DNA of 64,000 nt from Psychromonas sp. L1A2 (lineage in GTDB: Bacteria; Pseudomonadota; Gammaproteobacteria; Enterobacterales; Psychromonadaceae), in contig NZ_WUAG01000002.1 of NCBI RefSeq assembly GCF_009828855.1, positions 1,550,001-1,614,000 of the forward strand, read 5' to 3'. Made by a program: the position numbers and the translations under genes. Under the pieces are notes generated by a model. The model was given only the letters and a program-made list of their open reading frames with translations. It was not told the DNA's origin and searched no databases. Shown here one piece after another: positions 60,506-64,000 of the stretch (position 1 is the stretch's first letter; each line of letters begins with the position of its first letter).

Positions 60506-60584
60506 AATTTAGTTTCATCTCAAACATAAAGATCCATTTTAACATTAGTAACGTATGTAATCCTAATAACATTAAGGGATGCTC

Positions 60585-61496
60585 ATGAGTAAAGCAGCTG
60601 ATAGTAATAACCATGTTTTAATAACTGGCGCTTCTGGTTTAATTGGAAGTTCATTAGTGCCATTTTTACAGGCACAAGGCTATATCGTACACACATTGCA
60701 ACGAACACCTGATCCTACGCTACCTTATTGGAATATAGAAAAACAACAAATACAGCTTAATGGGTGTCCAACTCCTAATATTATCATTCACTTAGCAGGC
60801 GAGAATATTGCTAAGTCTCGATGGACAATAAAATCAAAAGAAAAAATAACTAACAGCCGCATACAATCAACACAGCTTTTAGTCGACTACATTAACAACA
60901 GCAAAACGCCGCCAGCTCTATTTATCTGTGCTTCTGCTATTGGGTTTTATGGGGACAGAGGGCAACAACCAGTAGATGAAGGAACCTCAAAAGGCAAAGA
61001 CTTTGTTAGCGAGTTAGCTGAAAAATGGGAGTTGACTTGCCAACAAGTGAGATCACCGAAAACTCGCATTGTTAATCTACGTACAGGTATTGTGTTAAAT
61101 AAAACAGAAGGTGCATTAGCAAAAATGCTACCAGCCTTTAAAATGGGGCTTGGAGGGAGAATAGGCACTGGTAAACAAGTCATGAGCTGGATAGATTTAA
61201 AAGATGAATTAAATGCTATTTTATTTATTATTAAACAATCAAACCTGACTGGTCCTGTTAACTTAGTTTCACCACATCCAGTCAATAATAAAACCTTTTC
61301 CATTATACTGGCTAATATTTTAAAACGTCCTTGCATACTGCCATTACCAGAATCTATTATAAAATTCTTATTTGGACAAATGGGCAAAGAGTTATTACTT
61401 TCAAGTACAAATGTACGTCCTACAAAGTTATTAAAAGCGGGCTTTAAGTTTGAATACGAATTATTAGAAGATAGTTTAAAACATCAATTGAAGTAA
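60585..61496 (+). CDS. yfcH: NAD-dependent epimerase-like protein YfcH (TIGR01777)
   Basis: A 303-residue short-chain dehydrogenase-like protein: N-terminal VLITGASGLIGSSLVPFL, active-site GFYGDRG region and the C-terminal DUF1731 domain (PTKLLKAGFKFEYELLEDSL). The ATG at 60585 was chosen because AAGGG lies 6 bases upstream; ATG at 60579 overlaps that motif. The function is unknown. The last bases of the gene recur near 62192 in the duplication downstream. Confidence 0.9.
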   Translation: MSKAADSNNHVLITGASGLIGSSLVPFLQAQGYIVHTLQRTPDPTLPYWNIEKQQIQLNGCPTPNIIIHLAGENIAKSRWTIKSKEKITNSRIQSTQLLVDYINNSKTPPALFICASAIGFYGDRGQQPVDEGTSKGKDFVSELAEKWELTCQQVRSPKTRIVNLRTGIVLNKTEGALAKMLPAFKMGLGGRIGTGKQVMSWIDLKDELNAILFIIKQSNLTGPVNLVSPHPVNNKTFSIILANILKRPCILPLPESIIKFLFGQMGKELLLSSTNVRPTKLLKAGFKFEYELLEDSLKHQLK

Positions 61497-62150
61497 CACT
61501 TTAAATAGTTGTACGAAAAGAAATTCTATAGGTAGGTAAATAATTTCTGGTATTCCAGAAACAGGAAAGGGCAGCCGAAGCTGCCCTTAATTTAGTCTTT
61601 CTATCGAATCCGTGATAGTTGATGCTCCCTGCAGTACATCCTTTTGACTAAGCCAAACTAGGCGTCCACTTCCCAAATCCTTTGGGTTCATCCTTGTAAC
61701 ATCCGTATTAGATAAACATCTTGTTTACCCGTCATCTCCCTGTCCTTAGGAGGTGTCCTTCTTTTGCCATCCTGGCTTAATAACTACAATCCTAGTAGGT
61801 ATTAAAAACTCCATCCTGGAGTGTCCTGATCATCCTTAATTATAAAACATCCTGTTTTATAAGCTCTCATCCTGAGAGGTCCAAATTGCCATCCTAGCAA
61901 TACAAAGGTTCAAATTTTACATCCTGTAAATCAATCCCCGTTTGCGAGATAGATATTACGGTTTTTCTAAAATAAAAGGGTTAAAGAGAATATTTAATTA
62001 CTGCCACATCTAACACGTAAAAACACAATTAATTAAAAAACAATCACTTATGGTTTTTTGTTACCTTATTTAATTAAATAACCTCGAATAAAAAGTACAA
62101 TAACCTCTATTGGCTATGGTCAATGTCTCACAAGAATAAGCCAGAGAAAA
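61475..62150 (+). repeat. Tandem duplication, unit 1
   Basis: About 0.7 kb, running from the last bases of yfcH through csrB copy 1 to the upstream activator site, is repeated about 734 bases downstream. The central RNA part is 98-99% identical without indels; the flanks have drifted and carry small indels (left offset 717, centre 734, right 733). Confidence 0.9.
61564..61946 (-). ncRNA. csrB1: CsrB-family regulatory RNA, copy 1
   Basis: Minus-strand RNA of about 383 nt. It carries about 22 GGA motifs, many as CAGGATG in the loops of short hairpins: TTTACAGGATGTAAA, CTCAGGATGAG, AACAGGATGTT, CCAGGATGG, CCCAAAGGATTTGGG. This is the CsrA-titrating design of E. coli CsrB (18-22 sites, 369 nt). 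The 3' terminator is GGGCAGC-TTCG-GCTGCCC followed by TTTCC (61567-61588). A TAATAT -10 box is at 61953-61958, and TGTGAGA, half of the UvrY/GacA box, at 62126-62132. CsrB soaks up CsrA and so relieves its control of carbon metabolism, motility and biofilm mRNAs. Confidence 0.9.
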
Positions 62151-62191
62151 TCGATAAAATGCCTTAAAAAGTTAAAATAATCAGAAGGGAG

Positions 62192-62890
62192 TTTAAAACA
62201 TCAATTGAAGTAACACTTTTAAATGATCGTGCGAAAAAAGTTTTATAGATAGGTAAGAGGTAAAACTAGGTAAATAATTTCTGGTATTCCAGAAACAGGA
62301 AAGGGCAGCCGAAGCTGCCCTTAATTTAGTCTTTCTATCGAATCCGTGATAGTTGATGCTCCCTGCAGTACATCCTTTTGACTAAGCCAAACTAGGCGTC
62401 CACTTCCCAAATCCTTTGGGTTCATCCTTGTAACATCCATATTAGATAAACATCTTGTTTATCCGTCATCTCCCTGTCCTTAGGAGGTGTCCTTCTTTTG
62501 CCATCCTGGCTTAATAACTACAATCCTAGTAGGTACTAAAAACTCCATCCTAGAGTGTCCTGATCATCCTTAATTATAAAACATCCTGTTTTATAAGCTC
62601 TCATCCTGAGAGGTCCAAATTGCCATCCTAGCAATACAAAGGTTCAAATTTTACATCCTGTAAATCAATCCCCGTTTGCAAGATAGATATTACGGTCTTT
62701 CTAAAATAAAAGGGGTAAAGATAATATTTAATGACTGACTCTCATCGCACGAAAAAAAACAATTAAATTAAAAACAATAGCTTATGTGTTTTTATTTTTT
62801 TTTAAATTAAATAACCTCGAATAAAAAGTACGATAACCTCTATTATCTATGGTCAATGTCTCACAAGAGTAAACCATAGAAAATGGGTCA
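62192..62890 (+). repeat. Tandem duplication, unit 2
   Basis: Second unit of the duplication. It begins with the yfcH 3' end copy (TTTAAAACATCAATTGAAG) and continues through csrB copy 2 to the conserved activator region (GGTCAATGTCTCACAAGA). Confidence 0.9.
62298..62680 (-). ncRNA. csrB2: CsrB-family regulatory RNA, copy 2
   Basis: Same structure as copy 1, shifted by 734 bases, with only five substitutions over about 383 nt (opposite 61705, 61728, 61802, 61818 and 61946) and no indels. The substitution at 62552 changes one hairpin from CTCC/GGAG to CTCT/GGAG, which a U-G pair preserves. Its own terminator hairpin is at 62301-62322, -10 box TAATAT at 62687-62692 and TGTGAGA site at 62859-62865. 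It is transcribed in the same direction as copy 1 and upstream of it. Confidence 0.9.
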
Positions 62891-63253
62891 ATGACTTCAA
62901 AAACTTGATTATCGTTAAAATACAGATTAAAAAATAATTTGATCTGCTTTAAAAACTGTTATTACCTGCCATTTTAAAAAGCAGTAAGTAAGTAAATAGA
63001 TATTTTTATAAAGAAGTCTATAAAAGGAGTGAAGATAAATTGTATTTCTAAATATGAGCTTAGTTCCTCTACTATTTTTATATTAACTATTTTATAAATT
63101 CATCCCATTACAATTTCAGCCCGAGTAACAAAAGTAACCACGCTACCTAGAAAAGCAACATAAGTACAAATTGATTTATTAAAGCGGTATTGAGCTTCTA
63201 ATACGTAAAGTAATTATAAATGTTTTTTAGTTTTATTTAGTAAAAATAAGCAT
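62891..63253. other. Intergenic AT-rich region, no gene seen
   Basis: Between the second csrB unit and the mnmE terminator I find only short frames, a few AT-rich direct repeats and no recognisable motif. Confidence 0.6.
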
Positions 63254-63311: not shown

Positions 63312-64000
63312 TTATTTACCAATACAGAAGCTTGAGAAGATACGCCCTAATAAGTCATCAGATGTAAATTCACCGGTTATCTCACTTAAGTGTTGCTGTG
63401 TTAAACGCAACTCTTCTGCCAGTAATTCACCTGCTTGATACTCTTCGAGTTGTACTTTACCTTCAAGTAAATGTTTTTCAGCCTGATCAATCGCTTCTAA
63501 ATGACGACGTCTTGCCATAAAGCCGCCTTCAGTATTACCTTGATAGCCCATTATATCTTTAAGGTGTTGTTTTAAATCATCAACACCTAAACCTGTTTTT
63601 GCTGATATTCGATAAACAGGATGATTTTCATGTTCAGTCATTGATAACACTTCACCTGTTAAATCAGCTTTATTACGCACAACGGTTAAACCTACGCCTT
63701 TAGGTAACTTTTCAATAAAGTCAGGCCAAATATCACGAGGATCTTCAGCATCAGTTGTTGTTGCATCTAGCATAAATAAGATGCGGTCTGCATTTTGAAT
63801 TTCAGTCCAAGCACGTTCAATACCAATACGTTCGACTTCATCTGCACCTTCACGTAAACCAGCAGTATCAATAATATGCAATGGCATACCATCAATGTGA
63901 ATGTGTTCACGCATCACATCTCGGGTTGTGCCCGCAATATCCGTTACAATCGCACTTTCTTTACCCACTAAGGTATTCAATAGACTTGATTTACCTGCAT
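63312..64000 (-). CDS. mnmE: tRNA modification GTPase MnmE, C-terminal part (5' end outside window)
   Basis: Minus-strand frame open to the window edge, encoding the last 229 residues or so. The G domain P-loop ([15 protein letters not shown]) is at the edge, followed by [15 protein letters not shown] and RNKADL. The C terminus ends FCIGK, which carries the conserved Cys of the FCIGK motif needed for tRNA modification. MnmE acts with MnmG on U34 of certain tRNAs. Confidence 0.95.

What the first reader, a model, noticed from the sequence alone, without database searches (positions are those of the whole stretch)
61564..62680. Two tandem, nearly identical CsrB-type RNAs on the minus strand
Seen: two 383-nt blocks with five substitutions and no indels, each an array of small hairpins showing GGA in the loop, each with its own -10 box, a TGTGAGA site and a terminator. 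Known: CsrB RNAs bind CsrA at CAGGATG loops; vibrios carry several copies, usually at separate loci. Inference: a recent duplication (or gene conversion) holds two sequestering RNAs in one place, possibly for dosage. The two arrays share orientation, so read-through past the copy 2 terminator could give a single longer RNA with over 40 sites.
Basis: partly seen in the sequence, partly recalled or inferred. Interest (0 to 1): 0.75.

Follow-up and report, generated by a model that had tools for sequence, protein, structure and literature searches.

The report
Twin CsrB RNAs kept identical
A Psychromonas bacterium carries two side-by-side, almost identical copies of a known regulatory "sponge" RNA (CsrB) that soaks up the protein CsrA; tandem copies are common in related bacteria, but here the copies are old and have apparently been kept identical by copying over each other.

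Summary
Both pass the Rfam CsrB gathering score (74.8 and 71.7 against 71). Each has a terminator, a putative -10 box, and an upstream TGTGAGA.AT.GACCAT box. That box occurs without mismatch three times in the genome, always upstream of a csrB gene. Single CsrA, UvrY (71%) and BarA (44%) homologues are present, so CsrA sequestration under BarA/UvrY control is the best reading. The host is Psychromonas, not a vibrio.

Tandem csrB is a known kind (Shewanella, Aliivibrio salmonicida) and is common in this order, with up to five copies in one array. The duplication is not recent: it carries a decayed copy of the end of yfcH, is present in two other species with a matching junction, and its flanks have drifted to about 80% identity while the RNAs stay 98.9% identical. 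This points to gene conversion limited to core promoter through terminator. The same signature appears in three other families, but two Psychromonas genomes do not show it. The read-through idea is untested and not favoured.

In passing: the same genome has an 832-nt CsrB-like RNA with 64 GGA motifs, built from an 81-nt repeat.

The parts
61557..61946 (-). Distal csrB copy (D, next to yfcH): predicted transcript of about 385 nt
   Evidence: Rfam RF00018 74.8 bits; 23 GGA, 9 AGGATG; fold z -4.3; start estimated from the -10-like hexamer, not measured
62291..62680 (-). Proximal csrB copy (P, next to mnmE): predicted transcript of about 385 nt
   Evidence: Rfam RF00018 71.7 bits; 24 GGA, 9 AGGATG; fold z -3.3
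61567..61588 (-). Intrinsic terminator of copy D, AAGGGCAGCTTCGGCTGCCCTT then TCCTGTTTCT
   Evidence: stem conserved in 17 aligned copies, with one CG-to-UA compensatory pair
62301..62322 (-). Intrinsic terminator of copy P, identical
61953..61958 (-). -10-like hexamer TAATAT of copy D
   Evidence: sequence; identical in copies D and P; not called by the strict consensus scan
62687..62692 (-). -10-like hexamer TAATAT of copy P
   Evidence: same as for copy D
62116..62133 (-). UvrY-type box upstream of copy D, TTGTGAGACATTGACCAT
   Evidence: one of three zero-mismatch matches in the genome, all upstream of csrB genes; found about -195 in most Psychromonas copies; E. coli csrB has TGTGAGAGATCTCTTACA at -191
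62849..62866 (-). UvrY-type box upstream of copy P, TTGTGAGACATTGACCAT
62176..62222 (+). Decayed copy of the yfcH 3' end left by the duplication (89% to 61459-61505)
   Evidence: direct repeat D3; same layout in SP041 and 2B2-76
61540..61979 (-). Homogenised tract (core promoter, RNA, terminator and a short tail), near-identical to 62274-62713
   Evidence: 18-20 of 20 matches in every 20-nt step at offset 734, falling off on both sides
60579..61496 (+). yfcH (TIGR01777-type epimerase), convergent neighbour; its 3' end was included in the duplication
   Evidence: ORF; name from own knowledge; relatives
63312..63998 (-). mnmE (3' part), upstream neighbour
   Evidence: ORF; name from own knowledge

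Best explanation
Two complete csrB genes sit in tandem between yfcH and mnmE. Each is transcribed separately from its own BarA/UvrY-activated promoter and ends at its own terminator, giving two nearly interchangeable RNAs of about 385 nt. Each RNA carries about 20 AGGA/GGA sites, many in hairpin loops, that bind and sequester CsrA. The pair arose by one tandem duplication that took in the yfcH 3' end, before three Psychromonas lineages split. The transcribed units have since been kept nearly identical by gene conversion, while the upstream regulatory sequence and spacers drifted. The likely benefit is CsrA-antagonist dosage plus room for the two promoters to diverge. Shown by computation: CsrB identity, anatomy, box specificity, presence of CsrA/UvrY/BarA, age of the duplication, homogenisation. 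Inferred: transcription, UvrY binding, CsrA binding, benefit.
For: Rfam hits over cut-off. GGA motifs above chance and better folding than shuffles; 17 of 85 consensus pairs have compensatory changes. The upstream box occurs without mismatch only three times in the genome, each upstream of a csrB gene, at the E. coli position. CsrA single copy, UvrY 71%, BarA 44% over 916 aa. RNA identity within one genome is 98.9, 98.9, 99.5 and 99.5% (G000, G009, G020, G002), against 95.9-97.0% between G000 and G020 and about 87% between G002 and G000/G009; upstream identity of the same within-genome pairs is 80, 82, 84 and 60%. Trees of the RNA body reject the D copies, and the P copies, of three species as clades (AU p 1.8e-6 and 7.8e-6). 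Upstream, G000_P and G009_P join (97/99) and the G000 pair is rejected as a clade (p 4e-4). About ten sites separate both G020 copies from all four G000/G009 copies; no site groups D against P across the three species. Same pattern in other families: G034 99.0% bodies with 54% upstream, G220 99.2/57, G256 98.6/56.
Against: No expression, CsrA-binding or UvrY-binding data. The strict promoter scan calls nothing at the -10-like site. Conversion is not universal: in G016/G023 each copy is closest to its positional counterpart in the other species, and G010, G008 and G022 pairs are only 70-93% alike. The upstream of the G000 and SP041 proximal copies is 97% alike although YfcH is 88%, so exchange between lineages may also have occurred.
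Confidence: 0.88

Rival explanations
1. A recent tandem duplication: the two RNAs are alike because they have had little time to diverge.
For: Five substitutions in 383 nt and no indels.
Against: The same duplicated unit has flanks at about 80% with indels; the pair and its junction recur in G009 and G020; in G002 the spacers are unalignable while the RNAs are 99.5% identical.
Confidence: 0.07
2. An old duplication whose RNAs stay alike through purifying selection alone, without gene conversion.
For: CsrB hairpins are clearly constrained, and constraint lowers divergence.
Against: The same RNA differs by 3-4% between G000 and G020 and 13% between G002 and G000, yet by 0.5-1.1% between the copies of one genome; substitutions appear in both copies of a genome together.
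Confidence: 0.05
3. The two units are one long transcription unit: read-through past the copy P terminator makes an RNA of over 1 kb with more than 40 sites.
For: Same orientation; the terminator U-tract (TTTCCTGTTTCT) is imperfect, so some read-through is possible.
Against: Each unit has its own terminator and upstream box. For neighbouring Shewanella oneidensis csrB1/csrB2, Northern sizes exclude a joint transcript (PMC3171408).
Confidence: 0.06

Closest known systems
Shewanella CsrB1/CsrB2 (S. oneidensis MR-1, S. putrefaciens CN-32)
   Same: Two csrB genes side by side, each with a UvrY box, UvrY-dependent, transcribed separately (PMC3171408)
   Different: In MR-1 a transposase lies between them; gene conversion is not described there in the passages read
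Aliivibrio salmonicida csrB2/csrB3
   Same: Adjacent csrB copies, the two nearest relatives of each other, attributed to duplication (PMC6262261)
   Different: Read there as a recent duplication; in Psychromonas the duplication is older than the species split and the RNAs are homogenised
E. coli CsrB
   Same: Rfam family, AGGA hairpins, 3' terminator, TGTGAGAGATC box near -191
   Different: Single copy next to syd; the right half of the box is TCTTACA instead of GACCATT
Pseudomonas rsmX-1/rsmX-2
   Same: Tandem CsrA/RsmA-sequestering RNA genes (PMC7911923)
   Different: About 110 nt each and 75-81% identical to each other

Membership tests
CsrB/RsmB sRNA (Rfam RF00018) | Covariance-model score at or above the gathering cut-off of 71 bits | tested here: met
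   74.8 and 71.7 bits
CsrB/RsmB sRNA (Rfam RF00018) | Many GGA motifs displayed in hairpin loops | tested here: met
   23-24 GGA and 9 AGGATG against shuffle mean 0.27 for AGGATG; folds with AGGA loops
CsrB/RsmB sRNA (Rfam RF00018) | Rho-independent terminator at the 3' end | tested here: met
CsrB/RsmB sRNA (Rfam RF00018) | UvrY/GacA-type box upstream and BarA/UvrY in the genome | tested here: met
   Box at about -195, left half as in E. coli, specific to csrB genes in this genome; UvrY and BarA homologues. The right half differs from TGTAAGN6CTTACA
CsrB/RsmB sRNA (Rfam RF00018) | Binds and antagonises CsrA | not testable with these tools
   CsrA is present; binding needs an experiment
Tandem csrB array | Two or more complete csrB units, same strand, adjacent, each with own promoter region and terminator | tested here: met
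   other arrays
Concertedly evolving paralogues | Paralogues within a genome more alike than positional orthologues between genomes, with flanks not following | tested here: met
   not met in G016/G023

The most novel reading that the evidence does not exclude
CsrA-sponge capacity in marine gammaproteobacteria is tuned by repeat dynamics at two levels: tandem csrB genes held identical by gene conversion limited to the transcribed unit while their promoters diverge, and internal tandem-repeat growth of single CsrB RNAs (81-nt units in Psychromonas, 51-nt units in another family) up to about 840 nt and 62-64 GGA motifs, with copy number varying between species.
Probability: 0.5. Interest if true: 0.62.

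Novelty: new member of a known kind. Interest (0 to 1): 0.42.

Why it matters
CsrB copies are usually discussed as redundant siblings. Identical RNAs under diverging promoters mean that differences between the copies, if any, lie in when they are made and not in what they bind, which can be tested with promoter fusions. The tandem arrays and internal repeats also give a natural series of CsrA-sponge sizes for asking how much binding capacity a cell needs. Existing annotation can miss the long forms: the 832-nt RNA of this genome scores below the Rfam cut-off as several fragments.

Tried and rejected
Recent duplication and purifying selection alone: rejected on flank and between-species divergence. 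Universality of gene conversion: rejected, because G016/G023 behave as ordinary positional orthologues. Literature searches for csrB with gene conversion, with Psychromonas, with Moritella and with repeat number found no paper describing either homogenisation or internal repeat growth of CsrB; subscription papers are mostly not held, so this is not proof of absence. The 195-aa minus-strand ORF over the repeat array in L006 was set aside as a product of the repeat.

Full report
What is there. The window comes from a Psychromonas genome (YfcH 87-88% identical to Psychromonas sp. SP041 and an uncultured Psychromonas isolate; G000 is 4.34 Mb in two contigs). Between yfcH (60579-61496, +) and mnmE (ending at 63312, -) lie two minus-strand CsrB units, 734 nt apart. 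Rfam calls both CsrB above its cut-off. The AGGATG count is far above shuffles and the stretches are the AGGA-richest of the window. Single-sequence folds are better than shuffles, and on 17 aligned Psychromonas copies 17 of 85 consensus pairs show compensatory change.

Control region. About 195 nt upstream of the first GGA, almost every Psychromonas csrB copy examined carries a box close to TGTGAGAGATCGACCATT; E. coli csrB has TGTGAGAGATCTCTTACA at -191. Allowing no mismatch, the box occurs three times in the whole genome, upstream of the two window copies and of a third csrB-like gene; the two matches with two mismatches are at the level of the reversed-pattern control. The genome has one CsrA, a UvrY homologue at 71% (intact 214-aa ORF) and a BarA homologue at 44% over its length. 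I therefore take the standard circuit, BarA/UvrY to CsrB to CsrA sequestration, as most likely. Transcription and binding are inferred, not shown.

Age of the duplication. The duplicated unit includes the 3' end of yfcH: 62176-62222 is a decayed copy of 61459-61505. The flanks of the two copies have drifted to about 80% with indels. So the duplication is not recent.

Homogenisation. Within a genome the RNAs are 98.9-99.5% identical, while the RNAs of G000 and G020 are 95.9-97.0% identical and those of G002 and G000/G009 about 87%. In G002 the spacers cannot be aligned, yet the RNAs differ at two sites. Trees of the body reject clades of positional copies, whereas upstream sequence groups the proximal copies of G000 and G009 and rejects the G000 pair. 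The tract of high identity in the window runs from about 61540 to 61979, from just past the terminator to just upstream of the -10-like hexamer. Gene conversion limited to the transcribed unit is the simplest account. Caveats: the 97% identity of the proximal upstream regions of G000 and G009 is higher than YfcH divergence would suggest, so exchange between lineages may also play a part; and in G016/G023 the copies follow position, not genome.

How common is it. A survey of 60 relatives, then 395 genomes of the order, found many same-strand adjacent CsrB hits. Arrays were checked in the DNA for Psychromonas (two or three copies), for a family with five copies in a row (G032), and for several others. 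Bodies of about 99% with unalignable or clearly more diverged flanks recur in G034, G220, G256 and G271, which belong to three families other than that of the window. Tandem csrB itself is published for Shewanella (PMC3171408) and Aliivibrio salmonicida (PMC6262261). The tandem pair is therefore a new member of a known kind; the homogenisation is an added observation for which I found no paper in the held library.

A larger relative in the same genome. At C2:1802606-1803437 lies an 832-nt CsrB-like RNA with 64 GGA motifs, built largely of an 81-nt unit repeated 6.7 times. It has an exact upstream box and a single terminator, at its 3' end. Rfam matches it only as fragments under the cut-off. 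SP041 has 5.5 units and 2B2-76 about 2.5 at the corresponding gene. In an unnamed genus of another family, all 11 genomes match a CsrB-like RNA with a 51-nt unit; the arrays that are assembled run from about 3 to about 12 units and up to 839 nt with 62 GGA, and several contigs end inside them. For comparison, E. coli CsrB is 366 nt with 22 putative sites (PMC3856055). This lies outside the finding and is reported as noticed in passing and in the novel case.

Verdict. Observation confirmed; interpretation partly supported; ordinary in kind, with an interesting evolutionary twist.

Noticed in passing
L006:4607-5438 (+), = G000:C2:1802606-1803437, same genome, outside the window: An 832-nt CsrB-like RNA with 64 GGA motifs, made of an 81-nt unit repeated 6.7 times, with an exact upstream box and one terminator; Rfam sees only sub-threshold fragments.
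   Followed up: partly
L161:1838-2608 (-) and L163:1870-2428 (+): The corresponding genes of SP041 and 2B2-76 have 5.5 and about 2.5 copies of the same unit, so the repeat number varies between close species.
   Followed up: partly
L170:2012-2749 (+), L228-L247: In an unnamed genus of another family, CsrB-like RNAs carry a 51-nt repeat in about 3 to 12 copies (up to 839 nt, 62 GGA), are themselves duplicated in several genomes, and contigs break inside them.
   Followed up: partly
L172:1813-4935 (-): Five csrB copies in a row in one genome (G032); copies 3 and 4 are identical, including 200 nt upstream.
   Followed up: partly
L143:1720-1830 (+): In G006 a short csrB-like piece with a complete terminator lies just upstream of the full csrB, perhaps a remnant of a tandem copy.
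   Followed up: no
window 62700-62900 versus the G009 equivalent (L129): The region upstream of the proximal copy is 97% identical between G000 and SP041 although YfcH is 88% identical and the distal upstream regions are 80%, which hints at exchange between lineages.
   Followed up: no
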